The notes under the pieces are model-generated. The model saw only the letters and a list, made by a program, of their open reading frames with translations. It made no database searches and had not been told where the DNA came from. Made by a program: the position numbers and the translations under genes. From Prauserella muralis (GTDB lineage Bacteria > Actinomycetota > Actinomycetes > Mycobacteriales > Pseudonocardiaceae), in contig NZ_MASW01000004.1 in assembly GCF_003202285.1 (NCBI RefSeq), positions 62,001-126,000 of the forward strand: 64,000 bases of DNA. Direction: 5' to 3'. Of this stretch, positions 1,343-21,394 are shown in pieces (the stretch's first letter is position 1; every line of letters starts with the position of its first letter).

Positions 1343-2839
1343 TCAGCCCGCCACCGCGAGGTACTTGACCTCGAGATACTCCTCGATGCCCTCGTCGCCG
1401 CCTTCCCTGCCGAGTCCGGAGTGCTTGACGCCGCCGAACGGGCCGGCAGGGTTGCTGACCAGTCCCTGGTTGATGCCGACCATGCCCGTCTCGAGCTGCT
1501 CCCCGACGCGCAGGGCGCGGGCGAGGTCCCGGGTGAACACGTAGCCGACGAGGCCGTACCGGGTGTCGTTCGCCGCCGCGACCACCTCCTGCTCCTCGCG
1601 GAAGGTGCTCACCGCCGCGACCGGCCCGAAGATCTCCTCCCGGGTGAGCCGCGCCGTGCCGGGCACCTCGGTCAGCACCGCCGGGGCGTAGAAGAACCCG
1701 ACGTCACCGCGGGGGCCGCCGCCGTGCAGCACGGCACCGTGCGCCACCGCATCGTCCACCAGTGCGCCGACCTTGTTCCGCTGCCGGGCGTCGATCAGCG
1801 GGCCGACGTCCGTTCCCGGTTCGGTGCCCCGGCCCACCCGCAGGGCCGTCATCCCGGCGGTCAGCCGCTCGGCGTACTCCCCGGCCACCGACTCGTGCAC
1901 GAACACCCGGTTCGCGGCCACACAGGACTGCCCCATGTTGCGCATCTTGGCGAGCAGGGTGCCCTCGATCGCGGCGTCGAGGTCGGCGTCGTCGAACACG
2001 ATCAGCGGTGCGTTGCCACCCAGCTCCATCGAGGTGCGCAGCACGTTGTCCGCCGCCTGCCGCAGCAGCAGCGCGCCCACGTCGGTCGAGCCGGTGAACG
2101 ACAGCTTCCGCAGCCGCGGGTCGGCCAGCAGCGGCGCCACCACGGCCGCCGGATCGGTGGTGCTCACCACGTTGAGCACCCCCGGCGGCAGCCCCGCCTC
2201 GGCGAGCACGTCGGCCAGCACGAAGCTCGCCAGCGGGGTCAGCTCGGCGGGCTTGAGCACCATGGTGCACCCCGCCGCGACCGCGGCCCCGACCTTGCGG
2301 GTGCCCATCGCGAGCGGGAAGTTCCACGGCGTGATGAGCAGGCTCGGCCCCACCGGCTGCCGGTGGGTGATGAGCCGCTGCCCGCCGCCGGGTGCGGCCC
2401 GGTAACCGCCGCCCACGTGGGCGGCCTGCTCGGAGAACCACCGCAGGAACTCCGCCGCGTAGGCGACCTCGGCGCGGGACTCCGGCAACGGCTTGCCCAT
2501 CTCCAGGGTGATCAGCAGCGCCAGGTCGTCGGTGCGGGCGACGAGTGCGTCGAAGGCCCGGCGCAGGATCTCGGCACGTTCCCTCGCCGCCGTCGCCGCC
2601 CACCCGTCCTGGGCGGCGACGGCGGCCTCGAGCGCGGCCGCCGCGTCGCCCGGCCCGCCGTCGGCCACCGCGGCGGTCAGCGGCAGTTCCGTCGCGGGGT
2701 CGGTCACCTCGAACGTCCGGCCGGACGCCGGGGCGCGCCACTCGCCCGCGACGAACACGCCGGCAGGCACGCTGGCCAGCACCCGGCGTTCCGCCTCGGC
2801 GCCGGGCTCGGACGTCGTGGTCTTCTCGATGGTCGGCAT
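1343..2839 (-). CDS. NAD(P)-dependent aldehyde dehydrogenase, succinate-semialdehyde dehydrogenase type
   Basis: A 498-residue member of the aldehyde dehydrogenase superfamily that would oxidise an aldehyde to its acid in the cytoplasm. Seen in order are the nucleotide-binding segment with PWNFPLAMGTRKVG, the glycine-rich FTGSTDVG, the general-base Glu in MELGGNAP and the nucleophile Cys in GQSCVAANRV; the C-terminal PFGGVKHSGLGREGG is typical of the GabD/SSADH branch. The frame stays open far upstream, but the ATG at 2839 is preferred because it gives the normal family length and clears the preceding gene by 29 bases. It is the last gene of the operon that begins at 11560. Confidence 0.88.
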   Translation of the reverse strand: MPTIEKTTTSEPGAEAERRVLASVPAGVFVAGEWRAPASGRTFEVTDPATELPLTAAVADGGPGDAAAALEAAVAAQDGWAATAARERAEILRRAFDALVARTDDLALLITLEMGKPLPESRAEVAYAAEFLRWFSEQAAHVGGGYRAAPGGGQRLITHRQPVGPSLLITPWNFPLAMGTRKVGAAVAAGCTMVLKPAELTPLASFVLADVLAEAGLPPGVLNVVSTTDPAAVVAPLLADPRLRKLSFTGSTDVGALLLRQAADNVLRTSMELGGNAPLIVFDDADLDAAIEGTLLAKMRNMGQSCVAANRVFVHESVAGEYAERLTAGMTALRVGRGTEPGTDVGPLIDARQRNKVGALVDDAVAHGAVLHGGGPRGDVGFFYAPAVLTEVPGTARLTREEIFGPVAAVSTFREEQEVVAAANDTRYGLVGYVFTRDLARALRVGEQLETGMVGINQGLVSNPAGPFGGVKHSGLGREGGDEGIEEYLEVKYLAVAG

Positions 2840-2868: not shown

Positions 2869-4044
2869 TCACAGCGCGGCGGTGAGGATGGTCTCGACGT
2901 CGCGCCCGCTGAACTCCTTCGGATGGTTCACGCTCACGATGTCGTCGAGGGCGCCGCGGGCGATGCCGGGGATCATGCCCGCGTCGACACCGAGCTCGCG
3001 CAGCGGCAGCCGCGCCCCGACGTCCTCGGCGAGGTCGCGCACCGCGCCGATGGCGACGGCCGCGTCCTGGTCGGGGTTGCCCGAGCCCGGCAGCCCCATC
3101 GCCTGCGCCACCAGCGCGTAGGGTGCCGCGGCCACGTCGGCGGACCACTGCATGACCCGGTCGAGCACGGAGGTGAGCGCGAGGCCGTGCACGGCGCCGG
3201 TGTGGTTGGTGACGCTGTGCGCGATGCCGTGCACCAGGCCGAGTCCGCTCAGGGTGAGCGCGAGCCCGGCCAGGTGCGCTCCCATGATGAGCCTCGACCT
3301 GGCCTCCAGGTCCGTGCCGTCGTCGACCGCGGTGGCCAGGCTGGAGCCGACCAGGCGGATGGCCTGCGTGGCGTAGGCCGCCGACACGGGGTTGGCGCCC
3401 TTGGCCGCCAGCGACTCGATGCCGTGCACCAGGGCGTCCATCCCGGTCGCCGCGGTGGCGCGCGGAGGCAGCCCGACGGTCAGCTCCGGATCCAGCAGCG
3501 CGAACCGGGGCCGCACGCTGGCATGTCCGATGTAGACCTTGCAGCGGCGGGCCGGGTCCTCGAGGACGCCGAACCCGTTGGTCTCCGCGCCGGTTCCCGC
3601 CGTGGTGGGCACGGCGATGACCGGCAGCCCGGGCCACGGCGGCTCGGCGGTGTAGTCGAAGTCCCTGGCGACACCCGTGTTCGCGGCCACGATGGCGATA
3701 CCCTTGGCGGCGTCCAGCGCCGAACCGCCGCCCACCGCGACCACGGCGGCCGCGCCGAACCGGCGGGCCTCGGCCGCTCCCTCGTCCACGGTCCGCGTGG
3801 TCGGGTTGGGCTCGACGCCCTCGTAGCAGGCGGTCTCGATCCCGGCACGGTCCAGGATCGCCAGCACCTTGCCGAGGATGCCGGTGGCGCGCATGCCCTG
3901 GTCGGTGACGACGAAGGCGCGCCGGTGCCCGACGCGGTCGACCGCGTCCGGCAGGTGCTCCACCACCGAGGCCCCGAAGTCGATGTGGGCGTGGGGCTCG
4001 ATCCGCAACGCGGTCCCCGCCGGCGTGTCGAACGACTCGTTCAT
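2869..4044 (-). CDS. Iron-containing alcohol dehydrogenase
   Basis: A 391-residue group III alcohol dehydrogenase. The dinucleotide-binding motif GGGSALDAAKG is clear, followed by TTAGTGAE, and the metal-binding histidine clusters appear in TGMDALVHGIE and in LVHGIAHSVTNHTGAVHG. Family members interconvert alcohols and aldehydes using NAD(P) with one Fe or Zn; some actinobacterial members are nicotinoproteins for methanol or other simple alcohols, but this gene cannot be assigned to them from sequence alone. GGGAGGGTGAC precedes the ATG. It starts one base after the reductase stop and ends 29 bases before the aldehyde dehydrogenase, so alcohol, aldehyde and acid steps are encoded next to one another. 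Confidence 0.88.
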   Translation of the reverse strand: MNESFDTPAGTALRIEPHAHIDFGASVVEHLPDAVDRVGHRRAFVVTDQGMRATGILGKVLAILDRAGIETACYEGVEPNPTTRTVDEGAAEARRFGAAAVVAVGGGSALDAAKGIAIVAANTGVARDFDYTAEPPWPGLPVIAVPTTAGTGAETNGFGVLEDPARRCKVYIGHASVRPRFALLDPELTVGLPPRATAATGMDALVHGIESLAAKGANPVSAAYATQAIRLVGSSLATAVDDGTDLEARSRLIMGAHLAGLALTLSGLGLVHGIAHSVTNHTGAVHGLALTSVLDRVMQWSADVAAAPYALVAQAMGLPGSGNPDQDAAVAIGAVRDLAEDVGARLPLRELGVDAGMIPGIARGALDDIVSVNHPKEFSGRDVETILTAAL

Positions 4045-4045
4045 G

Positions 4046-4948
4046 TCACCCTCCCACCGCGGCCCGCAGGTTCACGCCCGCCAGGTCCTCGTAGAGGCGT
4101 ACCGGGATCATCTCTCCGGCCAGGTCGCCGTAGGTCGTCTTGGCGCGCCGGTAGATCTGCTCCACCAGCGCGGACAGCTCGACCGGGACACCGGCCTCGC
4201 GCGAGACGTCCACGGCCAGCCCGAGATCCTTGCAGGCCAGCGCCATCGCGAAGGACTCGTCGTAGTCGCCACGTTCGATGATGCCGACGAGATCGTGCTC
4301 CACGACGTTGGAGTTGGCCGGGCTCGCGACGAGGGAGCGCCGCAGCACGCCGAGGTCGACGCCGACCTTGACCCCCAGGGTGAGCACCTCGGCGGCGGCG
4401 ACGAGGTGCGCGAACCACAGCAGGTTGACCATCAGCTTGACGGTGTAGCCGGCGCCGTGCCCGCCGACAAGGAAGATCCGCTCGGGATCGCCGAGGATCC
4501 GCAGCAGCGGCAGGCACCGCTCGAACACCGCGGCGTCGCCGCCCGCGAAGATCTGCAGCGTGCCGTCGGCCGCGCCCCGTGCCATGCCGCTCACCGGGGC
4601 GTCCATGCGGTGCGCGCCGCGTGCCGCGATGCGCTCACCGGGTGCGTGTGCCGCCGCCGGGGTCGACGTCGACATGTCCAGCCACACGGCGCCCGCGGGC
4701 AGCGCGTCGGCCGCCCCTGCTCCGAGCAGGACGTCGGCCACCTGGCGCGGCCCGGGCAGCATCGTGATGAGCACGTCGGCCCGCGCCGCCGCCTCCGCCG
4801 GTGTCGCGGCCCACGTCGCGCCCAGCGCGACGTGGCGTTCGGCCGCGTGTCCGTCCCGGTCGTGCACCACGAGCGGGATGCCCGCGCGGAGGATGTTGAG
4901 CGCCATGGGACCACCCATGTGCCCGAGTCCGATGAATCCTACGTTCAC
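4046..4948 (-). CDS. NAD(P)-binding oxidoreductase of the 3-hydroxyisobutyrate dehydrogenase family
   Basis: A beta-hydroxyacid dehydrogenase of 300 residues. The N-terminal Rossmann motif GFIGLGHMGGPMA, the substrate-binding segment DAPVSGMARGAADGTL and the catalytic Lys in the GYTVKLMVNLL helix are all present. Relatives act on 3-hydroxyisobutyrate, tartronate semialdehyde, sulfolactaldehyde and similar small hydroxyacids, so the substrate is open. Three in-frame starts exist; GTG at 4948 is chosen because GAGG lies six bases upstream and the protein then begins MNVGFIG as in the family. Alternatives are ATG at 4960 and GTG at 4969. It belongs to the tight minus-strand operon with the dehydrogenases on either side. 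Confidence 0.85.
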   Translation of the reverse strand: MNVGFIGLGHMGGPMALNILRAGIPLVVHDRDGHAAERHVALGATWAATPAEAAARADVLITMLPGPRQVADVLLGAGAADALPAGAVWLDMSTSTPAAAHAPGERIAARGAHRMDAPVSGMARGAADGTLQIFAGGDAAVFERCLPLLRILGDPERIFLVGGHGAGYTVKLMVNLLWFAHLVAAAEVLTLGVKVGVDLGVLRRSLVASPANSNVVEHDLVGIIERGDYDESFAMALACKDLGLAVDVSREAGVPVELSALVEQIYRRAKTTYGDLAGEMIPVRLYEDLAGVNLRAAVGG

Positions 4949-4988: not shown

Positions 4989-6503
4989 TCAGGACAGGTC
5001 GATCCAGGTGGTCTTCAGGGCGGTGTACTCGTCGATGGCGTGCAGCGACTTGTCCCGCCCCGATCCTGATGCCTTCACTCCGCCGAACGGGGCGAAGACG
5101 TCGGTGGCGTCGAAGGTGTTGACCCACACCGTGCCTGCGCGCAGCTCCCGTGCGACGCGGTGGGCGACGGTCAGCTCACTCGTCCACACCGAGGCCGCGA
5201 GGCCGTAGGCGGTCTGGTTGGCCAGTGCCAGCCCTTCCTCGATGCCGGCGAACTCCGCCACCGCCAGCACGGGGCCGAAGATCTCCTCCTGCACGGCACG
5301 GCTGCCGTGCGGCACCCGGTCGAGCACGGCGGGCCGCAGGAAGTACCCGCCGCTTCCGGGATCGAGCCGGTCGCCCCCGGTCACCTCGGCGCCGTCACGC
5401 CTCGCGATGTCCACGTAGGACAGCACGCGGTCGAGCTGGGCCTGGTCGACGATCGGCCCCATCGTGGTCGCGGGATCGAGTGGGTCGCCGACGGTGAAGC
5501 CGTGGATGACATCGACGACCCTGCCCAGCAGGTCCTCCTTGATCGCGCGGTCGGCGAGCAGCCGGGATCCCGCGTTGCAGGTCTGCCCCGCGTTGTAGCA
5601 GATGCCCCAGGCGATCGCCTCCGCCGCCGCGTCCAGGTTCGCGCTGTCGGCCAGCACGAGCTGCGGTGACTTGCCCCCGGCCTCCAGCTGCACCTGCTTG
5701 CCGTTGGACTCGCCCGCGTAGCGGAGGAACAGCTTGCCGACCTGGCCGGAGCCGGTGAAGGCGATCTTGTCGACGTCGCCGTGCCTGCCCAGCGCCTGGC
5801 CTGCCTCCTGCCCCGTCCCGGGCACGACGTTGAACACCCCGTCGGGCAGCCCGGCCTCGACGGCGAGCCTGGCCAGCAGCAGCGCCGACAGCGACGACTG
5901 CTCGGCGGGCTTGAGCACGACGCTGTTGCCCGCCGCCAGCGCGGGAGCGATCTTCCACGAGGCGATGATCAGCGGGTAGTTCCACGGCACCACGGCACCG
6001 ACCACGCCCAGCGGCTCGCGGGTGACGGTGACCAGCGCGCCCGGCCCGCTCGGTGCCACCTCGTCGTAGTGCTTGTCCAGCGCCTCGGCGTACCACTGGA
6101 TGCAGAACGCGGCCGAGGCGACGTCGACGCGGACGGACTCGGTGATCGGCTTGCCGACGTCGAGCGTCTCCAGCAGGGCCAGCTCCTCGGTGTGCTCGCG
6201 GATACGCCCTGCCCACCGCAGCAGCACCTCCTTGCGCTCGCGCGGCGAGAGTCCCCGCCACCTGCCGTCCTCGAAGGCTCGGCGAGCGGCCCGCACGGCG
6301 GCGTCGACGTCCTGCTCGCCACCGCGCGCGACGAGGGCGACGACGCTGCCGTCGCGGGGGGTGCGCGACTCGAACGTGGCGCCGGATGCCGCGTCCCGGT
6401 AGCCGCCGTCGACGAACATCCTGCCCTCCGGCGTGACGTTCTCGGCCGCCCGCAGCCAGTCGTCGTGGCGTCGCCGCAGCAGCGCGGTCAGGTCAGCGCC
6501 CAT
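4989..6503 (-). CDS. Aldehyde dehydrogenase, betaine/aminobutyraldehyde dehydrogenase type
   Basis: A second aldehyde dehydrogenase of 504 residues, clearly distinct from the one at 1343. It carries PWNYPLIIASWKIAPALAAGN, FTGSGQVGK, the Glu-containing LEAGGKSPQLV and the Cys motif AGQTCNAGSRLL, followed by EEIFGPVLAV. This pattern is nearest to betaine-aldehyde and gamma-glutamyl-aminobutyraldehyde dehydrogenases. The start at 6503 overlaps the end of the upstream enolase-superfamily gene by 16 bases, indicating translational coupling. In an operon with a quaternary-amine importer, betaine aldehyde or a related amino aldehyde is an attractive but unproved substrate. Confidence 0.87.
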   Translation of the reverse strand: MGADLTALLRRRHDDWLRAAENVTPEGRMFVDGGYRDAASGATFESRTPRDGSVVALVARGGEQDVDAAVRAARRAFEDGRWRGLSPRERKEVLLRWAGRIREHTEELALLETLDVGKPITESVRVDVASAAFCIQWYAEALDKHYDEVAPSGPGALVTVTREPLGVVGAVVPWNYPLIIASWKIAPALAAGNSVVLKPAEQSSLSALLLARLAVEAGLPDGVFNVVPGTGQEAGQALGRHGDVDKIAFTGSGQVGKLFLRYAGESNGKQVQLEAGGKSPQLVLADSANLDAAAEAIAWGICYNAGQTCNAGSRLLADRAIKEDLLGRVVDVIHGFTVGDPLDPATTMGPIVDQAQLDRVLSYVDIARRDGAEVTGGDRLDPGSGGYFLRPAVLDRVPHGSRAVQEEIFGPVLAVAEFAGIEEGLALANQTAYGLAASVWTSELTVAHRVARELRAGTVWVNTFDATDVFAPFGGVKASGSGRDKSLHAIDEYTALKTTWIDLS

Positions 6504-7599: not shown

Positions 7600-8115
7600 T
7601 CAGTCCGCCGAGTAGAAGGGGTTGCGGGGGGCGTCGCGAGCGTGGAGCACGTCGTCGAGGGCAGGTTCGGCCCGCGCCCCCGCACGCAGCGCGGTGCGCA
7701 CCGCCTCGCGGTTGTTGCGGTAGATCTGGTCGGGGTCCGAGGCGGCCGGGTTCACCCAGACCGCCGTGATCAGTGCCAGGTCGTCGACCTCGCCGGCCGG
7801 GATCACGCCGTCGGCCACGGCGTCGGCGACACCCGCCGCCACCCCGGCCTGCGCCGGTCCCCAGTGCAGGTGGCCGTGCTCGTCGCCGGTGATGGTGGCC
7901 TTGTTGACGAACAGCGTCGCCGGTTTGACCGGCAGCCCGGGCCGGATGATCGCGACGAACGGCTGGTGTCCCGCGCTCGGACCGGCCAGCGCGGTGGACC
8001 ACGCCGTGCCGACCGCGCCGTTGCGGGGCCCGAGCACGGTGTTGATGTGTGCCGCGTTGGCGCCGTCGCCGACGAAGCTCTCGCCGATCTGCACTCCGGT
8101 CACAGCTGAAGTCAC
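7600..8115 (-). CDS. fae: Formaldehyde-activating enzyme (Fae) homologue
   Basis: A 171-residue protein that matches Fae over its whole core: QIGESFVGDG, the AHIN segment carrying the conserved catalytic His (residue 23), LGPRNGAVGTAW, KPATLFVNKATI and GPAQAGVAAGVADAVADG. Fae condenses formaldehyde with tetrahydromethanopterin in methylotrophs and methanogens. A homologue in an actinomycete is unusual, because this phylum generally detoxifies formaldehyde through mycothiol and no methanopterin gene is visible here. The GTG start at 8115 overlaps the stop of the solute-binding gene by four bases (GTGA). Context with a quaternary-amine importer suggests formaldehyde from demethylation, or a related aldehyde, as substrate; that is inference. 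Confidence 0.88.
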   Translation of the reverse strand: MTSAVTGVQIGESFVGDGANAAHINTVLGPRNGAVGTAWSTALAGPSAGHQPFVAIIRPGLPVKPATLFVNKATITGDEHGHLHWGPAQAGVAAGVADAVADGVIPAGEVDDLALITAVWVNPAASDPDQIYRNNREAVRTALRAGARAEPALDDVLHARDAPRNPFYSAD

Positions 8116-9044
8116 AGCAGTCCCTCCTCCTGCAGCCAGCGCTGCGCCACGTCCTCGGCGTCGAGGCCTTCGACGTCGACCTGGGCGTTGAGCTGCTGCA
8201 TCGTCGTGGTGTCGAGCCGCTCCGCCAGCGGCCCGAGGATGTCGGCGATCTCCGGATGCTGTTGCAGCGTCTGCTGTTTCAGCGTCGGAGCGCCCTGGTA
8301 GACGGGGAAGAATCGCTTGTCGTCATCGAGGACGGTGAGGCCGAGGTTCGCGATCCGGCCGTCGGTGGCGAACACCTCCCCGAAGTTGCAGGCGTCGCCC
8401 TTGCCGGTCTCGGCGTAGATGACGCCGGTGTCGAGCGTCTTGATCTGCTGGCGGGGGACGTCGATGCCGTAGGTCCGCAGCAGGCCGCTCAGCCCGTCGT
8501 CGCGGGCGGCGAACTCGCTCTCGACGCAGATGGTGACGGCCTGCGGCTGCGACCGCGCCAGCTCGGCGACGTCCGACAGGGTCTTCAGGCCGTGCTGCTC
8601 GGCGAAGCCGGTCCTGACCGCGAGCGCGTAGGTGTTGTTGAAGCCGGCGGGTTCGAGCCAGGCGATGCCGTTCTCGGCCGCGTCGTTCCGCTTCACCGCC
8701 TCGTACTGCTCGGCGGGGTCACTGATCGGCGTGGTGTTGCCGAGGTAGGTGATCCAGCCCGTGCCGGTGTACTCCCAGTAGAGGTCGACCTCGCCGGATT
8801 CGAGTGCCTTGCGGGTGTTGACCGACCCGGTGATGCGTTTCGGCTCCGCGTCGGCGCCGCGGGCCTCGAGCAGCTGCGCCGTCATCGCGGCGAGGATGTC
8901 CTGCTCGCTGAAGTCCTTGGCGCCGACGACGAAGGACGTCCCGGCGAGCGGGCCTTCCCCGCCGGAGGCGTCACCGCCGCATCCGGCGAGGCCGATCGCG
9001 GCGGCGCCCGCGACGGCGAGGGTCAGTACTGTGCGCATGGACAT
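8112..9044 (-). CDS. Glycine betaine/carnitine/choline-type ABC transporter substrate-binding lipoprotein
   Basis: A 310-residue extracytoplasmic binding protein. It begins with a short hydrophobic signal ending in the lipobox LAGC, so the mature protein is lipid-anchored at its Cys. The mature part opens VVGAKDFSEQDIL and contains YWEYTGTGW, both hallmarks of the OpuAC/OpuCC/ProX fold that binds quaternary ammonium compounds. GGGAG lies six bases before the ATG at 9044. It is 45 bases downstream of the second permease gene and overlaps fae by four bases, so importer and Fae are translated from one message. Confidence 0.88.
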   Translation of the reverse strand: MSMRTVLTLAVAGAAAIGLAGCGGDASGGEGPLAGTSFVVGAKDFSEQDILAAMTAQLLEARGADAEPKRITGSVNTRKALESGEVDLYWEYTGTGWITYLGNTTPISDPAEQYEAVKRNDAAENGIAWLEPAGFNNTYALAVRTGFAEQHGLKTLSDVAELARSQPQAVTICVESEFAARDDGLSGLLRTYGIDVPRQQIKTLDTGVIYAETGKGDACNFGEVFATDGRIANLGLTVLDDDKRFFPVYQGAPTLKQQTLQQHPEIADILGPLAERLDTTTMQQLNAQVDVEGLDAEDVAQRWLQEEGLL

Positions 9045-9089: not shown

Positions 9090-9869
9090 TCAGAGCCCGC
9101 GGGGACGGACGGAGTGTTCGAGGACGCCGGCGAGCCAGTCGAGGGCGAAGGCGACCACGGTGGTGAGCACGGCACCGGTGAGCAGGATCGGCGTCCGGGT
9201 GGTCTTGATCCCGGCCACGATGATGTCGCCGAGGCCGCCGGCGTTGACGAACGTCGCCACGGTGGCGACGCCGACGGACAGCACGATCGTGGTCCGCAGC
9301 CCGGCGAGCATCACCGGGACCGCGAGCGGCAGTTCGATCTTGCGCAGCACCTGTCCCGGGGTGAGGCCCATGCCGAACGCCGCCTCGACCAGGCTCCGGT
9401 CGACCTGCTGGATGCCGATGATCGTGTTGCGCAGCACCGGCAGGATCGCGGTGACCACCAGTGCCGCGATCGCCACGGTCTGCCCGATCGAGAACAGCAT
9501 CGCCATGATCACGAGCACACCGAGTGCGGGCGCCGCCTGGCCCATGTTGGCCGCGGCGAGGGCCACCGGGGTGATCCAGCGTGCTCGCGGGCGGGTGAGC
9601 AGGATCCCCAGCGGCATCGCGATCGCCACGATGAGCAGGGACGCGATGGCGGTGAGCTTGAGATGCCGCAGGGTGGCGTCGCCGATCGCGCCCGCGTCGA
9701 GCACGCGTGCCTCGATGCTGTCCAGCTCCTGGCCGCTGACCCAGAGATACAGGGCGAGCAGGACGACGGCCAGTGCGGCGGGCGTGACCAGGTGCCGGGC
9801 CAGCTGCCCGCGCGACCAGCGGCGGCCCGGCCTGGCCGCGGAGGACGTCCCGAGGGTGTCAGCCGACAT
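9090..9869 (-). CDS. Quaternary-amine ABC transporter permease (OpuCB/ProW type)
   Basis: A 259-residue membrane protein with about six spans and the inner-membrane-component signature near ILPVLRNTIIGIQQVDRSLVEAAFGMGL, followed by LRKIELPLAVPVMLAGLR, the EAA loop contacting the ATPase. It pairs with the other permease at 10913 and the ATPase at 9859. The start ATG at 9869 overlaps the end of the ATPase gene by 11 bases; the longer open frame upstream would run inside that gene and is not used. Confidence 0.86.
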   Translation of the reverse strand: MSADTLGTSSAARPGRRWSRGQLARHLVTPAALAVVLLALYLWVSGQELDSIEARVLDAGAIGDATLRHLKLTAIASLLIVAIAMPLGILLTRPRARWITPVALAAANMGQAAPALGVLVIMAMLFSIGQTVAIAALVVTAILPVLRNTIIGIQQVDRSLVEAAFGMGLTPGQVLRKIELPLAVPVMLAGLRTTIVLSVGVATVATFVNAGGLGDIIVAGIKTTRTPILLTGAVLTTVVAFALDWLAGVLEHSVRPRGL

Positions 9870-10920
9870 CGCGACCCCCCGGCTGCCCCGCTCGTGCCCA
9901 CAGCTCGCAGATCCGGGTGAAGTCGAGGCTGCCGAGTACGGCCCCGTCCCGGTCGGTGACGTGGATGCGGTCCCTGCCGTTGCGCAACATCGCGTCGATG
10001 GCATCCCGGACGGTGTCCTCACCGGACACCGAAAGGCCACCGGAATCGTCACCCGGCGGGGCCAGCGCGATGTGCCGCAGCGCGTCGTCCACTGTGGTCA
10101 GCCCGGAGCGGCGGATGGCCGCCGCCGACCCGACGAACCCGGCGACGTACTCGTCGGCGGGTGCGGACAGGATCCGCTCCGGCGTGTCGAACTGGGCGAT
10201 GACCGAGCGCTCCCGCAGCACGGCGATCCGGTCACCGAGCCGCAGCGCCTCGTCGAAGTCGTGGGTGACGAACACGATCGTCTTCCGCAGCTCCCGCTGC
10301 AGCTTGTGGAACTCGGTCTGCAGGTGTTCGCGCGTGATGGGGTCGGTGGCGCCGAACGGCTCGTCCATGAGCATCACCGGAGGGTCGGCGGCGAGCGCCC
10401 TGGCGACGCCGACGCGCTGCTGCTGGCCTCCGGACAGCTGCCGCGGGTAGCGGCCGCGGTAGGCGGACGGGTCGAGGCCGACGAGCTCCAGGAGCTCGTC
10501 GACGCGAGCGGCGATGGTGACCGCCTTCCAGCCGAGCAGCCTCGGCACCAGCCCGATGTTCTCCGCGATCGTCAGGTGCGGGAACAGGCCGATCTGCTGG
10601 ATGACGTAACCAATGCGCCGTCGCAGCTCGGCAGGGTCGAGCCGCAGCACGTCCTCGCCGTTGATCAGGACGTGGCCGCTGGTGGGCTCGATGAGGCGGT
10701 TGATCATCTTCATGGTCGTGGTCTTGCCGCAGCCGGACGGCCCGAGCAGCATCACCAGCTCGCCCGCGGCGATGTCCATGGAGACGTCGTCGACCGCGGG
10801 TTCGGACTGTCCTGGATACCGCTTGGTGAGCGCGACCAGCTCAATGCGCGCGCCACCCTCGGCGGGTGCGGACCGGCGGCCTGCGGGACGGGACACGACG
10901 GTGGAACTGGACTCAGACAC
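9859..10920 (-). CDS. Quaternary-amine ABC transporter ATP-binding protein (OpuCA/ProV type)
   Basis: The ATPase of the importer, about 353 residues from GTG at 10920. Walker A is GPSGCGKTT, the signature is LSGGQQQRVGVARAL, Walker B is VMLMDEPFGATD and the switch His lies in VTHDFDEA. The C-terminal 100 residues resemble the tandem CBS region that senses ionic strength in OpuA-type ATPases (IRRSGLTTVDDALRHI and DGAVLGSLDFTRI), though the domain looks short. GTG at 10920 is preferred because it limits the overlap with the upstream permease to 8 bases and is preceded by AGGGG; an upstream in-frame ATG at 10968 would lie inside that gene. Confidence 0.86.
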   Translation of the reverse strand: MSESSSTVVSRPAGRRSAPAEGGARIELVALTKRYPGQSEPAVDDVSMDIAAGELVMLLGPSGCGKTTTMKMINRLIEPTSGHVLINGEDVLRLDPAELRRRIGYVIQQIGLFPHLTIAENIGLVPRLLGWKAVTIAARVDELLELVGLDPSAYRGRYPRQLSGGQQQRVGVARALAADPPVMLMDEPFGATDPITREHLQTEFHKLQRELRKTIVFVTHDFDEALRLGDRIAVLRERSVIAQFDTPERILSAPADEYVAGFVGSAAAIRRSGLTTVDDALRHIALAPPGDDSGGLSVSGEDTVRDAIDAMLRNGRDRIHVTDRDGAVLGSLDFTRICELWARAGQPGGRDVG

Positions 10921-11560
10921 GGAGGCCCCTTGAGGTCGTGAGTCGGCGGATGACGATGAAGGCGGCATCGAAGACCAGCGCGAGGGCGACGACGCCGAGC
11001 GTGCCCGCGATGGCCTGGTTGAGGGCGTTGGCCGCCCCCAGCCGCGCCAGCCCGGCGAAGATCTCGTGGCCGAAGCCGGGTCCGGCGACGTAGGCCGCGA
11101 TGGTGGCGATCGCGAACAGCAGCTGCGCCGACACCCTGATCCCGGTGATGATCACGGGCCAGGCCATCGGCAGCTGGACGCGCCACATCGCCCCCGTGCG
11201 GGACAGCCCCATGCCGTCCGCGGCCTCGAGAATCGCCGGGTCGACCGCGCGCAGCCCGGCGACGGTGTTGCGCACGATCGGCAGCAGGGAGTAGAGCACC
11301 AGCGCCGTCACCGACGGCACCCAGCCGAGCCCGAGCACCGGGATCAGCAGGGCGAGCAGGGCCAGCGAGGGAATCGTGAGCAGGCCCCCGGAGGCGGCCA
11401 GTGCGACGCCCGACCAGCGCGGGCTCTGCCAGGTCAGCATGCCGACGCTCACTCCGATGAGGACGGCCAGAGCCAGCGCGACCACGACGACCGCGAGATG
11501 CTCGGCGGCCATGGTCAGCAGGTCGTCCCAGTTGAACTCGAGGTACTCGGCGAACGACAC
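10913..11560 (-). CDS. Quaternary-amine ABC transporter permease, first gene of the ten-gene operon
   Basis: A 215-residue permease with about five or six spans and the conserved LPIVRNTVAGLRAVDPAILEAADGMGLS loop followed by LPMAWPVIITGIR. The open frame extends far upstream, but GTG at 11560 is clearly the start: an almost perfect Shine-Dalgarno sequence, AAAGGAGGTG, lies at 11568-11577 and the protein then begins at its first hydrophobic region. It opens the operon that runs to 1343, and is divergent from the IclR gene with a 108-base gap that must contain both promoters. Confidence 0.87.
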   Translation of the reverse strand: MSFAEYLEFNWDDLLTMAAEHLAVVVVALALAVLIGVSVGMLTWQSPRWSGVALAASGGLLTIPSLALLALLIPVLGLGWVPSVTALVLYSLLPIVRNTVAGLRAVDPAILEAADGMGLSRTGAMWRVQLPMAWPVIITGIRVSAQLLFAIATIAAYVAGPGFGHEIFAGLARLGAANALNQAIAGTLGVVALALVFDAAFIVIRRLTTSRGLRV

Positions 11561-11629
11561 CCGCCCACCTCCTTTGGTGTGACGTCGGTGTTCAGAAGGT
11601 AGAACCGCGGTGTCATATGGACAATGATG

Positions 11630-11646
11630 GTTGCTCTGACGGCAAC
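11630..11646. promoter_or_regulatory. Palindrome GTTGC-N7-GCAAC between the importer operon and the IclR gene
   Basis: A perfect 5+7+5 inverted repeat, GTTGC TCTGACG GCAAC, in the divergent gap, 23 bases before the probable IclR start. A looser TGTC-N5-GACA element overlaps just upstream (around 11612-11624). IclR regulators bind short palindromes in such divergent regions, so this is the best operator candidate; no footprint or consensus comparison was possible. Confidence 0.4.
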
Positions 11647-11668
11647 TGATGCGAACGGAGGGATGGCC

Positions 11669-12445
11669 ATGGCCGCCCGGGTGAACGCCGCGGGACTGCG
11701 CCGCGACCTGGAGATTCTCGACGTCCTCGCCCACGAGGCCGGGCCCCGCGGCGAGCCGCTCGGCGTCACGAGGGTCGCCGAGCTCGTCGGCAGGGAGAAG
11801 TCGCAGATCTCGCGTGCCCTGTCCTCCCTCGCCGAGGAGGGGCTGGTGGAACGTGACGACCGCTCGTCGGGCTACCGGCTGGGCTGGCGCCTCTACGCGC
11901 TCGCCGCCCGCACCTTCGAGTCGCGGCTGGTCGCGATCGCGACTCCGTACCTGCGCGCGGTCGTGACGCGGGTGCAGGAGACGACCGTGCTCTGCGTCCT
12001 GCGCGGCGACGACGTGCTCACCATCGCGAGCGAGACGCCGCCGCACGCGTTCCGGGGCGTGGGCTGGGAAGGCGTCTCCGTGCCCGCCGCGGCGACCTCC
12101 GCCGGGCGTGTGCTCGTGTCCGACTGGGACGCCGACACGATCCGGTCCTTTTTCACCGAACGCAAGCTGGCGGCCGCGGGCGAGCATCCCGCCATCCGCA
12201 CCCCGGACCAGTTACTGGCCGAGCTGGAGCGGATCCGCGCCCGCGGCTACGCCACGGTGGACGAGGAGTTCGAACACGGTGTCGTCGGGTGTTCGGCTCC
12301 CGTGCGCGACTTCAACGGCCGCATCGTGGCGGCCGTGAACATCACCGCACCGAAGACCCGGCTCGGCGAGCGGCTGGACGCGGCGGGCCGCTTCGTCGCC
12401 AACGCCGCCCAGCAGCTCACCAGGCGACTCGTGGAGTCGCGGTAG
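11669..12445 (+). CDS. IclR family transcriptional regulator
   Basis: A 258-residue regulator with an N-terminal winged helix-turn-helix (LRRDLEILDVLAH to SQISRALSSLAEEGLVERDD) and a C-terminal IclR effector-binding domain, including the usual end segment GRIVAAVNITAP. It is divergent from the ten-gene importer/dehydrogenase operon and is the obvious candidate to control it in response to a small organic ligand. In-frame ATGs exist at 11624, 11663 and 11669; 11669 is chosen because GGAGGG (11657-11662) is then six bases upstream, whereas it would directly touch the ATG at 11663. Confidence 0.88.
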   Translation: MAARVNAAGLRRDLEILDVLAHEAGPRGEPLGVTRVAELVGREKSQISRALSSLAEEGLVERDDRSSGYRLGWRLYALAARTFESRLVAIATPYLRAVVTRVQETTVLCVLRGDDVLTIASETPPHAFRGVGWEGVSVPAAATSAGRVLVSDWDADTIRSFFTERKLAAAGEHPAIRTPDQLLAELERIRARGYATVDEEFEHGVVGCSAPVRDFNGRIVAAVNITAPKTRLGERLDAAGRFVANAAQQLTRRLVESR

Positions 12446-17127: not shown

Positions 17128-17925
17128 TCAGCGTGAGGGCGGCTTGATGTTGTCGCGGGAGGGGAAGGCCGCCGGACGCCGTTCGGCGAAGGCACGGAGG
17201 CCTTCGCGGGCGTCGGGAGACGCGAAGGCCTTCTGCCCGTACAGGGCCTCACTGTGGAACGCCTGGTCTTGCGGGAGGTCGCCAAGCCGCAGGACCGCTT
17301 CCTTGATGGTCGCGAGGGCCGTGCCGCTCTTGCCCACCAGCCGATGCGCGCGCCGCAACGCCGTGTCGAGCAACTCGCCGGCCGGAACCACCTCATTCAG
17401 CAACCCGTACCGCAGCGCCTGCGCTGCGGGTATCCGGTCGCCCTCGAGCATCAGCTCCATCGCCCAGACGTACGGGATCTGCCGCGTCAGCCGCGTGAGC
17501 GTGCCACCGGCCGGCACGACCCCGACACCGCTCTCGGGAAAGCCGAACGAAGCGGTGTCAGCCGCGATCCGGATGTCAGTGGACAGCATGATCTCGAAGC
17601 CACCGCCCAGGCAGAGGCCGTTGACCGCGGCGATCACCGGCTTGAACAAGGTGGTGTGCTTCTGGTGCGCACCGTCCCACTCCGAGATGTCGAACCGGCC
17701 GTCGGCCAGGGCCGGGATCGACTCCGTGAGGTCGGCACCGACACAGAAGGCGCTGTCGCCTCGGCCGGTGAGGATCGCGACAGCGAGCGATTCGTCGTCG
17801 CGCACCTCGGTGAAGGCCGCAGCGAGTTCCTCGTACATCGCGAGCGTGAGCGCGTTGAGCTTGTCCGGCCGGTCGAATCTGATGATCGCCACCGCGCCGT
17901 CGCGCTCGAAACTGATCCCGCCCAT
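17128..17925 (-). CDS. Enoyl-CoA hydratase/isomerase family protein
   Basis: A 265-residue crotonase-fold protein acting on acyl-CoA thioesters. The oxyanion-hole segments are FCVGADLTE and VNGLCLGGGFEIMLSTDIRIA, and ASFGFPESGVGVVPAGGT carries Glu at one of the two usual catalytic Glu positions. It could hydrate an unsaturated acyl-CoA, such as a branched enoyl-CoA. Its ATG shares one base with the stop codon of the upstream CoA-transferase gene (TGATG), so the two proteins are made together, consistent with an acid being activated as CoA ester and then hydrated. Confidence 0.87.
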   Translation of the reverse strand: MGGISFERDGAVAIIRFDRPDKLNALTLAMYEELAAAFTEVRDDESLAVAILTGRGDSAFCVGADLTESIPALADGRFDISEWDGAHQKHTTLFKPVIAAVNGLCLGGGFEIMLSTDIRIAADTASFGFPESGVGVVPAGGTLTRLTRQIPYVWAMELMLEGDRIPAAQALRYGLLNEVVPAGELLDTALRRAHRLVGKSGTALATIKEAVLRLGDLPQDQAFHSEALYGQKAFASPDAREGLRAFAERRPAAFPSRDNIKPPSR

Positions 17926-19184
17926 CAGATCACGCCCTTCTCGCGCAGCTCGGCGATGCGCAGATCGTCGACGTCGGCGAGCGCCCGCAGAACGGTGTCC
18001 GCGTGCTCCCCGACCTTCGGTGCGAGCCCGCGCGGCTGGGTCGGCGTAACGCCCAGCTTGATCGGCGAGCCGACCATCCGCAGCTCCCCGAACTCGGGGT
18101 AGTCGACGCCGACCACCATGTCCCGCGCGGCGATCTGCGGGTCCTCGACCACCTCCCCGATGTCCTTGATCGCGCTCAACGGTACGGCGTCACCGACGAT
18201 CTCCTCCAGCTCCGTCTTCGTCCTGTCCTCGAACCAGGTGTGCAGCAATGGCCGCACCCGCCGTTCGTACACCTCGGGAACGAACCGTTTGGCCATCGTG
18301 TCGATCTCGGGGTCCTCGGCGAGTTCGGGTTGTCCGAACAGGTGGCAGGACAGCCGCCAGAACTTGTCGGTGTACCCGCCGAAGAACACGAATCCGTCCT
18401 TGCACGGGTAGAGCTCGTAGGGCTTGACGAAGGGATGCTCGTTGCCCAGCGGTCCCGGCACTGTGCCGTCCACGGTGTATGTCACCACGGCGTTCTCGGT
18501 CAGACTGAGTACCGAGTCCTGCTGCGACACATCGACCATTTGTCCCTGCCCCGATCTCTCCGCGTGCCGGAGCGCGGCGAGCGTTCCGATGACGGCGTAG
18601 AGGGTCGCGGACAGGTCGCCGATGATGGTGCCCACCCGCGCCGGCGGCCGATCGGGGAATCCGTTCATCGACCACAGTCCGCCTGTGGCCTGGGCGCTGT
18701 TGTCGTAGGCAGGCCGCCGCCGGTACGGCCCTGTCTGCCCATAACCCGAGATCGCCGTGTAGACGAGGCGGGGATTCTCCGTGCGCAGCACATTGTAACC
18801 GACGCCGAGCTTGTCCATCGTTCCCGGCCGGAAGTTCTCGACGAGGACATCGGCGCGCCGCACAAGCTTCTTGAGCAGGTCCTTTCCATCCTGAGTGGAC
18901 AGATCGATCGTGAGCCCGAACTTGTTGCGGTTGTACTGGGCGAAGAACGCGCTCAGTTCCTCGCCGGTGCCGGCCTGCAGCTTCGGCGGGAAAGCCCTGG
19001 CGTAGTCTGGTTCCTTCGGGTTCTCGATCTTGATCACGGTCGCACCGAGATCGGCCAGCAGCATCGAACAGAACGGACCAGCCACGACCCGCGTGATGTC
19101 GAGGACCACGATGCCGCGCAGCGCACCCCGGGACAGTCCACCGGGAAGCATCCCCGCGATCCCACCGTCGTCGTTGATCGTCAT
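17925..19184 (-). CDS. Family III CoA-transferase (CaiB/BaiF type)
   Basis: A 419-residue type III CoA-transferase moving CoA from an acyl-CoA donor to a free acid. It begins GIVVLDITRVVAGPFCSMLLADLGA, contains ENFRPGTMDKLG, and places the catalytic Asp at residue 161 in PAYDNSAQATGG, where formyl-CoA transferase has its nucleophile. The C-terminal HADTVLRAL is also standard. It is directly coupled to the enoyl-CoA hydratase and 27 bases downstream of the HyuB-like gene, forming one operon from 23452 to 17128. Confidence 0.9.
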   Translation of the reverse strand: MTINDDGGIAGMLPGGLSRGALRGIVVLDITRVVAGPFCSMLLADLGATVIKIENPKEPDYARAFPPKLQAGTGEELSAFFAQYNRNKFGLTIDLSTQDGKDLLKKLVRRADVLVENFRPGTMDKLGVGYNVLRTENPRLVYTAISGYGQTGPYRRRPAYDNSAQATGGLWSMNGFPDRPPARVGTIIGDLSATLYAVIGTLAALRHAERSGQGQMVDVSQQDSVLSLTENAVVTYTVDGTVPGPLGNEHPFVKPYELYPCKDGFVFFGGYTDKFWRLSCHLFGQPELAEDPEIDTMAKRFVPEVYERRVRPLLHTWFEDRTKTELEEIVGDAVPLSAIKDIGEVVEDPQIAARDMVVGVDYPEFGELRMVGSPIKLGVTPTQPRGLAPKVGEHADTVLRALADVDDLRIAELREKGVI

Positions 19185-19211
19185 GCTTGCCTCTCATCCC
19201 TCGATGACATG

Positions 19212-21365
19212 TCAGCTGGTCGCCACATCCACCCGGACACGTGCCTCCAGCAGGGTTCCGCAGGAAGGACTGTAGAACTCGTCGATCAGCACGCGGCGGC
19301 CCTCGGTGCGCGGGCGGGCGCGGACACCGTGCTCGGCCAGCCGCCCGGCGGCGACATGCGTGACCTTCCGCGCCTCGTCACGCCAGTCGTCGCCGTCGCC
19401 GAGGCGGGCGCCACTGGCGGGCACGTACCAGCCCTCGGCGTCGCGGCGCGGCGCCGACGATCCGGCCGGGGACGTCGGCGGAACCTGTCGGGCGGGAGTG
19501 TCACCGCCGAGCCGTTCCCGGCGCAGCGCGGCACGGGTTCGCCGTGTGGTGGCCTCGTCGACGGTTCCGTCGGTGACAATCACGCCGTAGGTGCGCTGGG
19601 CGGTCTCCGCGGTGACGTAGCCGTCGCGGACATCGGCGGCGACGAGCTGTGGGTCGCGCAGCAACGGATCACCGTAACCGCCGCCACCGGCGATCCACTG
19701 CACCAGCACGTCCCCGGCGCGGATCGTGACCGACTGCTGGTTGATCGCCAGGAGCTCCTGTTCGGCCGCGCTCACCGTGTCGCGAGTGGGAACCTGGCCG
19801 TCGGCCAGGAGCCGGGCGACGTCCGTCCGGCGCCAGACCTCGTGGCCACTGCCGCCGCCCGGCAGACCGCCACCGAACCCGTCGGCGACCACCTGGGCGT
19901 TGGGCGCGAACACCGTCTGCGTGACCTCCTGGGCACCGTGCAGCGTCCACGCGAAGCGCAACCCGAGCCCGCCACGGTGGGCACCGTGCCCGGCACTTTC
20001 GGTGCTGAGCTGTTTCCACAGGTACAGCACCGGATACAGCATCTCGTTCATCTCGACGTCCGGCAGCATGTTGTTCACCTGCGTCATCATCCCGGCGCAG
20101 TCGAGCCCGTCGTGGTCCGGCTGCGCGCCCGCGCCCATGCCACCACCGTCCATGTTGAACAGCACGAAGTAGTCGCCGTCGTCGGTAGTGCCGGCCGAGA
20201 TGCCGCCGGTCCACGAATCGCCCCACACACCCTGGGTGCGGTCGCGCACCGTGTCGTCATCGCTACGACGGCAGGCCTCGTTCATCAGCTTGGTGACGAC
20301 GCGGCTGACGCGTGCGCCGGTGGTGAGGTGGCCGTTGCTGATCGGCGCCGGTGGCCGGGGGTTCACGATCGATCCGGGCTCGGCGATGATGTCGAACGCG
20401 GTCATCACGCCCTCGTTGAACGGGACATCCCAGGCGAGGATCGGAACGATCGCGGTCGCGACACTGCCGACCAATGCGCCGTAGCTGCAGTTGACGAACC
20501 CGTCGGTCTGCTCGCTGGAGCCGGTGAAGTCGAAGGTGATCTGGTCGTCGCGTTTGGTCATGGTGCACGCGACGCGGTAGAGCTCGTCAACGTGTCCGTT
20601 GTGCTCGGTCCACTCATCAGCGTGGTAGATGCCGTCTGGGATGCGCGAGATGCGGTCCCGTACGACCTGCTCGGCCAGCTGGAAGGACAGCTTCGTGTAC
20701 TCGCGGAACCGCTCGAGCCCGAACTCCTCGATGCTGCCCAGCAGCCGCCGGATGCCGGTGTTGTTGCTCGCGACGAGACTCCGCACGTCGTTCCAGAAGA
20801 GCGCGGGGACACGCACGTTGTTGAGCAGGATCCGGCGCACCCACTCCACGGGCTCGCCCCGGTCGAAGATCTTGACCCCTGGCGGCAACCGGAGCGCCTC
20901 GGCATAGCAGTCGTGGGCACCGGGCGCGAACCCGCCCGGGGTCATCCCGCCGACGTCGATCAGGTGCGCCTGGGACTGCGCCCAGCCGATCAGCTCGTCA
21001 CCGTGGAAGATTGGCGAGATCACGTTGGTGTCCGGCGGGTGGCTCGCGCCGGCGGTGTGCGGGTCGTTGCAGATGAACGCGTCCCCAGGAGCCAGCGTTT
21101 CGCCCTCGATGGCCTGCACCAGGTTCTGCACGGCGACGCTGCCGGAACCGATGTGGAACTGGACGTAATCGGAGTAGGCGTAGATGCGCCCGGCCGGGTC
21201 GAACAGCGCGGTGTTGAAGTCACCGGCCTCGGTGATCACCGGCGAGCCGGACGAGCGGATCATCGCGATGCCCATCTCCTCCACGATGGAGTCCAGGCGC
21301 ATGCGGATCACTTCGAGGGTGACCGGGTCGAAGCCATCGGGCAGGGCGATCGGAGTGCTGGTCAT
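19212..21365 (-). CDS. hyuB: Hydantoinase B/oxoprolinase family protein with a C-terminal zinc-ribbon-like extension
   Basis: A 717-residue HyuB-type subunit: DPVTLEVIRMRLDSIVEEMG opens the domain, ICNDPHTAGASHPPD and HLIDVGGMTPGG carry metal-site residues, and GGGGYGDPLLRDP closes it near residue 580. Homologues with HyuA form ATP-dependent hydantoinases, oxoprolinases or biotin-free ketone carboxylases (acetone and acetophenone carboxylase). After residue about 640 comes an extra 75-residue segment with EGWYVPASG and FYSPSCGTLLE, resembling the small zinc-containing subunit of acetone carboxylase-like enzymes. That favours the carboxylase reading over hydantoinase. GGAG precedes the ATG. 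Confidence 0.85.
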   Translation of the reverse strand: MTSTPIALPDGFDPVTLEVIRMRLDSIVEEMGIAMIRSSGSPVITEAGDFNTALFDPAGRIYAYSDYVQFHIGSGSVAVQNLVQAIEGETLAPGDAFICNDPHTAGASHPPDTNVISPIFHGDELIGWAQSQAHLIDVGGMTPGGFAPGAHDCYAEALRLPPGVKIFDRGEPVEWVRRILLNNVRVPALFWNDVRSLVASNNTGIRRLLGSIEEFGLERFREYTKLSFQLAEQVVRDRISRIPDGIYHADEWTEHNGHVDELYRVACTMTKRDDQITFDFTGSSEQTDGFVNCSYGALVGSVATAIVPILAWDVPFNEGVMTAFDIIAEPGSIVNPRPPAPISNGHLTTGARVSRVVTKLMNEACRRSDDDTVRDRTQGVWGDSWTGGISAGTTDDGDYFVLFNMDGGGMGAGAQPDHDGLDCAGMMTQVNNMLPDVEMNEMLYPVLYLWKQLSTESAGHGAHRGGLGLRFAWTLHGAQEVTQTVFAPNAQVVADGFGGGLPGGGSGHEVWRRTDVARLLADGQVPTRDTVSAAEQELLAINQQSVTIRAGDVLVQWIAGGGGYGDPLLRDPQLVAADVRDGYVTAETAQRTYGVIVTDGTVDEATTRRTRAALRRERLGGDTPARQVPPTSPAGSSAPRRDAEGWYVPASGARLGDGDDWRDEARKVTHVAAGRLAEHGVRARPRTEGRRVLIDEFYSPSCGTLLEARVRVDVATS

Positions 21366-21394
21366 GGTCGTCTCCTTCGACGAGTCGGGCGGGG

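What the first reader, a model, noticed from the sequence alone, without database searches (positions are those of the whole stretch)
7600..8115. Formaldehyde-activating-enzyme homologue in an actinobacterial quaternary-amine operon
Fae belongs to tetrahydromethanopterin-dependent C1 metabolism, absent from most actinobacteria. Here a full-length Fae with the conserved His is coupled (GTGA) to a betaine/choline-type binding protein gene and followed by an enolase-superfamily enzyme and dehydrogenases. It may capture formaldehyde from demethylation, use another pterin or thiol, or catalyse a new reaction.
Basis: partly seen in the sequence, partly recalled or inferred. Interest (0 to 1): 0.6.

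Follow-up and report, generated by a model that had tools for sequence, protein, structure and literature searches.

The report
Formaldehyde-enzyme relative without its usual cofactor
An enzyme family known only from one-carbon metabolism with the cofactor methanopterin is found, catalytically intact, in about 4% of sampled actinobacteria, and those checked lack that cofactor's pathway; it usually sits in what looks like a nutrient-degradation operon (often with a choline-type importer), so it probably does a different and still unknown job.

Summary
Window 7600-8115 (-) encodes a full-length Fae-family protein: PF08714 185 bits, TIGR03126 above cut-off, predicted fold TM 0.93 to M. extorquens Fae. 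It overlaps the gene of an OpuAC-type binding protein (GTGA) and precedes an enolase-superfamily enzyme and dehydrogenases. The genome (99.9% complete) lacks Mch and beta-RFAP synthase; Mch is also absent from 48 genomes with close relatives and 26 more Fae-bearing actinobacterial genomes. This Fae belongs to a mainly actinobacterial clade, separate from canonical Fae, that keeps the catalytic His, Lys and Gln but has fixed changes at many canonical positions. Across 85 loci the core is Fae + beta-hydroxyacid dehydrogenase + succinate-semialdehyde-type ALDH, often with a quaternary-amine ABC transporter and IclR regulator. Two gene trios replace each other on this core (one locus has both): enolase/PuuC-like ALDH/Fe-ADH, or SDR/alkyl-DHAP-synthase-like flavoprotein/FGGY kinase. 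I infer a catabolic pathway in which either trio cleaves a glyceryl ether, perhaps a betaine-lipid head group, and Fae acts at the aldehyde step without methanopterin. H4MPT-independence is well supported; substrate and Fae reaction are hypotheses. Fae groups of unknown function are already in the literature; this operon and module swap were not found there.

The parts
7600..8115 (-). Fae-family protein (H4MPT-independent clade), 171 aa; alternative start at 8103
   Evidence: PF08714, TIGR03126, PDB 1y5y, fold match to 1y60
8112..9044 (-). OpuAC-type substrate-binding protein; choline/acetylcholine/ergothioneine-binding relatives; aromatic residues Y89, W90, Y92, Y139, F225, Y249 invariant in 48 homologues
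   Evidence: PF04069, PDB matches, conservation
9090..9869 (-). ABC transporter permease (ProW/ChoW-like)
   Evidence: PF00528, NCBIfam
9859..10968 (-). ABC transporter ATPase, betaine/proline/choline family (TIGR01186 over cut-off); start uncertain (10896 also possible)
10913..12187 (-). ABC transporter permease, second; start uncertain
   Evidence: PF00528
6488..7597 (-). Enolase-superfamily (MR/MLE) enzyme; K149, R151, D180, E216, E242, D265, H292, E317 invariant in 29 homologues
   Evidence: PF13378/PF02746, conservation
4989..6503 (-). Aldehyde dehydrogenase, PuuC-like; member of trio 1
   Evidence: PF00171, NCBIfam; trio analysis
4046..4948 (-). HIBADH-type beta-hydroxyacid dehydrogenase; core partner of Fae; start uncertain (4969 also possible)
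   Evidence: PF03446/PF14833, PDB 3cky, present in 60 of 76 loci
2869..4044 (-). Iron-type alcohol dehydrogenase; member of trio 1
   Evidence: NCBIfam, PDB
1343..2839 (-). Aldehyde dehydrogenase, succinate-semialdehyde type; shared by both operon types
   Evidence: PF00171, TIGR01780 best match, below cut-off

Best explanation
Shown: this is a Fae-fold enzyme of a clade distinct from canonical Fae, in genomes without methanopterin C1 genes, inside a conserved catabolic-type operon with a choline/betaine-type importer. Inferred: the operon degrades an imported ammonium compound R-O-glyceryl, for example the deacylated head group of a betaine lipid. In this genome the Fe-ADH and PuuC-like ALDH would oxidise the glyceryl end to a glycerate ether, and the enolase-superfamily enzyme would abstract the alpha proton and expel R-OH, leaving pyruvate. 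In the sister operons an SDR would make a ketone, an alkyl-DHAP-synthase-like flavoprotein cleave the ether and an FGGY kinase trap dihydroxyacetone. The shared branch would then oxidise R-OH with the HIBADH-type dehydrogenase to a semialdehyde. Fae would act on that aldehyde (elimination of the amine, or release/transfer of formaldehyde) with the acid-base chemistry of canonical Fae, and the SSADH-like ALDH would finish. Fae thus works without H4MPT. Layered confidence: H4MPT-independent 0.95; catabolic operon of a cationic or zwitterionic substrate 0.8; Fae at the aldehyde stage of the core branch 0.5; glyceryl-ether substrate 0.35; betaine-lipid head group 0.2. The confidence given below is for Fae as a methanopterin-free step of this catabolic branch, not for the named substrate.
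For: No Mch, no beta-RFAP synthase in own genome; Mch in 0 of 48 and 0 of 26 further Fae-bearing genomes, with positive controls. Separate clade; H23/K72/Q89 kept, fixed changes at canonical positions. Core Fae + HIBADH + SSADH-type ALDH recurs (HIBADH 60/76, SSADH-type 53/76, IclR 56/76, OpuAC SBP 46/76); S. clavuligerus has the bare core. Trios nearly exclusive: 25 loci with 2-3 genes of trio 1 alone, 30 of trio 2 alone, 1 with both, with at least 4 switches on the Fae tree. Catalytic residues of the enolase and of the flavoprotein (aligned to alkyl-DHAP synthase R419, Y578, H615-617), and SBP aromatics, invariant. HIBADH nearest structure is 2-hydroxymethylglutarate dehydrogenase. In proteobacteria an aldo-keto reductase takes the HIBADH place while the SSADH-type ALDH stays.
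Against: No substrate is known; 30 of 76 loci lack the OpuAC SBP nearby and some use MFS or Opp-type transporters. 19 of 76 loci have neither trio. Seven loci pair Fae with a HalD-like oxygenase and none of the core enzymes. No experiment links this Fae to any aldehyde. The sample was selected by similarity to this Fae, so co-occurrence counts are not independent.
Confidence: 0.5

Rival explanations
1. Formaldehyde trap: the pathway releases formaldehyde (demethylation, or retro-aldol of a hydroxymethyl group), and this Fae speeds its condensation with a non-methanopterin carrier such as tetrahydrofolate or mycothiol.
For: Catalytic core of Fae kept; directly upstream HalD-like 2OG-Fe oxygenase in 7 other loci, which could demethylate; a tetrahydrofolate role has been suggested for unassigned Fae groups (PMC11748545).
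Against: No demethylase in the operon or among recurrent partners of the main types; two mycothiol-dependent formaldehyde dehydrogenases elsewhere in the genome make it redundant; it does not by itself explain the tie to HIBADH and SSADH-type ALDH.
Confidence: 0.3
2. Non-catalytic role: the Fae-like protein binds an aldehyde or formaldehyde as a sensor or buffer that tunes the operon.
For: Regulatory or sensing roles were suggested in the literature for unassigned Fae groups (PMC11748545); fae2/fae3 mutants of Methyloversatilis have no C1 phenotype (PMC5023235).
Against: Catalytic His, Lys and Gln are invariant in the clade; an IclR regulator is already present in most loci; translational coupling to pathway genes.
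Confidence: 0.1
3. Ordinary methanopterin-dependent Fae in an organism with an overlooked methanopterin pathway.
For: TIGR03126 score is above the equivalog cut-off.
Against: Mch and beta-RFAP synthase absent from a 99.9% complete genome while controls ring; Mch absent from all clade genomes tested; separate clade.
Confidence: 0.03

Closest known systems
[quoted passage not shown] extorquens, PDB 1y5y/1y60
   Same: whole-length homology, about 39% identity, same fold (TM 0.93), conserved His, Lys and Gln
   Different: separate clade, fixed changes at D24N, F38W, Q79H, F84W, F119W, H121N, W122P, H164N; genome lacks Mch and beta-RFAP synthase; different operon
Unassigned Fae groups 2-4 of PMC11748545 (fae1-2/fae3-type homologues)
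   Same: Fae-like proteins of unknown function, actinomycetes among the sequences used
   Different: no operon analysis reported in the text read; I could not map this clade onto a group because the tree figure is not held; fae3-type sequences near fhc genes fall outside this clade
OpuB/OpuC/EgtU-type quaternary-amine ABC transporters
   Same: SBP, two permeases, ATPase of the betaine/proline/choline family; aromatic residues kept
   Different: ligand unknown; fused into a catabolic operon, not osmoprotection
Mandelate racemase / acid-sugar dehydratase branch of the enolase superfamily
   Same: metal ligands, KxR, His-Asp pair and Glu present
   Different: no equivalog model reaches its cut-off; substrate unknown
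Alkyl-DHAP synthase (sister, type-2 operons only)
   Same: the type-2 flavoprotein keeps the HHHG motif and the residues aligned with Arg419 and Tyr578
   Different: bacterial, shorter (491 aa), next to an SDR and an FGGY kinase; function unknown; not encoded in this window

Membership tests
Fae protein family (PF08714 / Fae fold) | full-length profile match above curated cut-off | tested here: met
   185.5 bits vs 27; TIGR03126 165 vs 118
Fae protein family (PF08714 / Fae fold) | Fae fold | tested here: met
   model TM 0.93, rmsd 1.4 A to 1y60
Fae protein family (PF08714 / Fae fold) | invariant active-site His | tested here: met
   H23, invariant in 90 clade members
H4MPT-dependent Fae (EC 4.2.1.147) | methanopterin pathway in the genome (Mch, beta-RFAP synthase) | tested here: not met
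   absent in own genome; Mch absent from relatives' genomes
H4MPT-dependent Fae (EC 4.2.1.147) | groups with mch-linked Fae in the tree | tested here: not met
   canonical clade 99/99 without it
H4MPT-dependent Fae (EC 4.2.1.147) | canonical conserved residues beyond the catalytic core | tested here: not met
   fixed differences at eight or more positions
H4MPT-dependent Fae (EC 4.2.1.147) | accelerates formaldehyde + H4MPT condensation | not testable with these tools
   needs an enzyme assay
Quaternary-amine ABC importer | OpuAC-type SBP with aromatic cage residues | tested here: inconclusive
   family match and six invariant aromatics; cage geometry and ligand not tested
Enolase superfamily, MR branch | metal ligands and catalytic acid/base residues | tested here: met
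   D180, E216, E242, K149, R151, D265, H292, E317 invariant in 29 homologues
Glyceryl-ether betaine catabolic pathway (proposed, not a known family) | growth on, or turnover of, a glyceryl-ether betaine | not testable with these tools
   inference from the module swap only

The most novel reading that the evidence does not exclude
Fae has been recruited as a methanopterin-free lyase (for example an amine- or formaldehyde-releasing step on a betaine semialdehyde) in a bacterial pathway for glyceryl-ether betaines such as betaine-lipid head groups. In that pathway the ether is opened by either of two unrelated three-gene modules, an enolase-superfamily route or an alkyl-DHAP-synthase-like flavoprotein route.
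Probability: 0.2. Interest if true: 0.88.

Novelty: new variant of a known kind. Interest (0 to 1): 0.62.

Why it matters
Fae is a textbook marker of methanopterin-dependent C1 metabolism and can be used to call methylotrophy from genomes. In these bacteria that call would be wrong, and TIGR03126 would misname the clade. If the substrate were found it would define a new reaction for the fold and a soil catabolic pathway. If the betaine-lipid reading is right, it would suggest how bacteria consume a phosphorus-free membrane lipid of fungi, algae and mosses.

Tried and rejected
Ordinary methanopterin Fae: rejected. Puu-like gamma-glutamylation pathway, suspected from gene sizes: rejected when the 258/491/468-aa partners proved to be an SDR, an FAD enzyme and an FGGY kinase. 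Ergothioneine degradation, because EgtUC is among the SBP's relatives: left open, no positive evidence. Sugar-acid pathway with an aldolase: no aldolase among the recurrent partners. GlcD-like 2-hydroxyacid oxidase for the type-2 FAD enzyme: less likely, because the best PDB matches are alkyl-DHAP synthases and their catalytic residues are kept. PMC3160333 as prior art for Fae without H4MPT: it only cites glutathione-dependent Gfa, which is unrelated. Literature searches for this operon or for bacterial betaine-lipid head-group catabolism found no description, within the open-licence library only and mostly from titles and abstracts.

Full report
Observation. The ORF 7600-8115 on the minus strand encodes a complete Fae-family protein: PF08714 at 185.5 bits over the whole profile, TIGR03126 above its cut-off, closest solved relative Methylorubrum extorquens Fae. 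A model built from 25 relatives has pLDDT 91.7 and superposes on 1y60 with TM 0.93 and rmsd 1.4 A. The start GTG overlaps the stop of the OpuAC binding-protein gene, and the enolase ATG follows the Fae stop by 2 nt.

Genome. The assembly (7.47 Mb, 99.94% complete) has one Fae, no Mch and no beta-RFAP synthase, while methanogen controls ring in the same searches. It has two high-scoring mycothiol-dependent formaldehyde dehydrogenases, so formaldehyde removal need not depend on Fae.

Distribution. Fae occurs in 11 of 399 genomes of the order, and this clade in 17 of 396 sampled Actinomycetota. A scan of GTDB contigs returned 181 relatives; the best 80 are mostly from Microbacterium, Lentzea, Streptomyces, Nocardioides, Arthrobacter, Cryobacterium and similar, with a few Myxococcota. 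None of 48 of their genomes searched, nor the S. clavuligerus plasmid, has Mch; a Phyllobacterium plasmid with a canonical mch/fhc/fae locus is positive. 26 further Fae-bearing actinobacterial genomes are also negative.

Phylogeny and residues. Canonical Fae sequences (several of them mch-linked) form a 99/99 clade; the window protein lies in another clade (89/90) with actinobacterial, myxococcal and some Burkholderia, Caballeronia and Ensifer sequences. The bootstrap had not fully settled. The clade keeps H23, K72, T67 and Q89 (AM1 H22, K71, T66, Q88) but differs in a nearly fixed way at D24N, F38W, Q79H, F84W, F119W, H121N, W122P and H164N. This pattern suggests retained acid-base chemistry with a changed substrate pocket. 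Pocket contacts themselves were not inspected.

Neighbourhood. Genes of 85 loci were called with a script and clustered. The core is Fae, a HIBADH-type dehydrogenase, an SSADH-like ALDH, usually an IclR regulator and often an OpuAC-type ABC transporter. On this core one of two trios is present: MLE enolase + PuuC-like ALDH + Fe-ADH (type 1, this window), or KduD-like SDR + alkyl-DHAP-synthase-like flavoprotein + FGGY kinase (type 2). Of 76 well-covered loci, 25 have two or three genes of trio 1 alone, 30 of trio 2 alone and one of both; 19 have neither and one has a single trio-1 gene. The Fae tree needs at least four switches between types, of which strongly supported branches force two. This genome has no close homologue of the type-2 flavoprotein (best 38% over part of the length). 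S. clavuligerus carries the bare core. A distant Fae clade B sits near the type-2 trio in two of four loci. In proteobacteria an aldo-keto reductase takes the place of HIBADH while the SSADH-type ALDH remains.

Mechanism (inferred). Two unrelated trios that replace each other should do the same job. Trio 2 looks like oxidation of a secondary alcohol, redox-neutral ether cleavage next to a ketone, and phosphorylation of dihydroxyacetone. The flavoprotein's best structural relatives are alkyl-DHAP synthases, and it keeps the residues aligned with R419, Y578 and H615-617 in 32 of 32 members; the roles of those residues are from my own knowledge. Trio 1 can reach the same cleavage by oxidising the glyceryl CH2OH to a carboxylate and beta-eliminating the alkoxide, a reaction an enolase-superfamily enzyme could perform; 3,6-anhydrogalactonate cycloisomerase, an ether-opening member (own knowledge), is among the PDB matches. 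The remaining alcohol would be oxidised by the HIBADH-type enzyme, whose closest structure is 2-hydroxymethylglutarate dehydrogenase, and end at the SSADH-like ALDH, with Fae at the aldehyde stage between. With a binding protein of the choline/betaine type and an invariant aromatic set, a glyceryl-ether betaine such as a betaine-lipid head group is the simplest candidate I could find. Each step after 'the trios are exchangeable' is a hypothesis.

What speaks against it. Many loci use other transporters, and 7 loci couple Fae to a HalD-like 2OG-Fe oxygenase without the other genes. That supports the rival in which the protein still handles formaldehyde, on another carrier. The loci were picked by similarity to this Fae and are partly near-copies, so the co-occurrence counts are descriptive.

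Prior knowledge. Five Fae groups have been described, of which three (2-4) have no known function, and actinomycetes are among the sequences (PMC11748545); fae2 and fae3 mutants in Methyloversatilis had no phenotype on C1 substrates (PMC5023235). The existence of unexplained Fae homologues is therefore known. The Mch-free distribution, the conserved operon and the exchangeable modules were not found in the papers searched.

Noticed in passing
L051, L057, L060, L081, L091, L092, L099 (gene directly upstream of Fae): A HalD-like 2OG-Fe oxygenase (PF23169) sits directly upstream of clade-A Fae in seven loci, without the HIBADH/ALDH core; a possible two-gene oxygenase-Fae unit.
   Followed up: partly
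L020-L023: A second, distant actinobacterial Fae clade (about 30-35% identity, with an insert) occurs without Mch; in L020 and L023 it lies near the same SDR/flavoprotein/FGGY trio and a class III-like Zn-ADH.
   Followed up: partly
L121 (Aquabacterium olei pTB101) 7920-8456: A fae gene beside fhc genes aligns only from after the His region; it may be a Fae3-type protein that lacks the catalytic His.
   Followed up: no
L104 (Streptomyces clavuligerus plasmid): Bare core operon: ABC transporter, SBP, Fae, HIBADH-type dehydrogenase and SSADH-type ALDH, without either trio, on a megaplasmid next to biosynthetic genes.
   Followed up: partly
window 17128-23452: Hydantoinase/oxoprolinase A and B genes followed by a CoA-transferase III and an enoyl-CoA hydratase, a separate catabolic cluster.
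   Followed up: no
window 25524-26798: HMG-CoA reductase (PF00368).
   Followed up: no
L019 (G266:C4, around 3937671-3938144): A good Fae-profile match (1.4e-45) lies in an open frame given as 1080 aa, opposite a long called gene; gene structure unclear.
   Followed up: no
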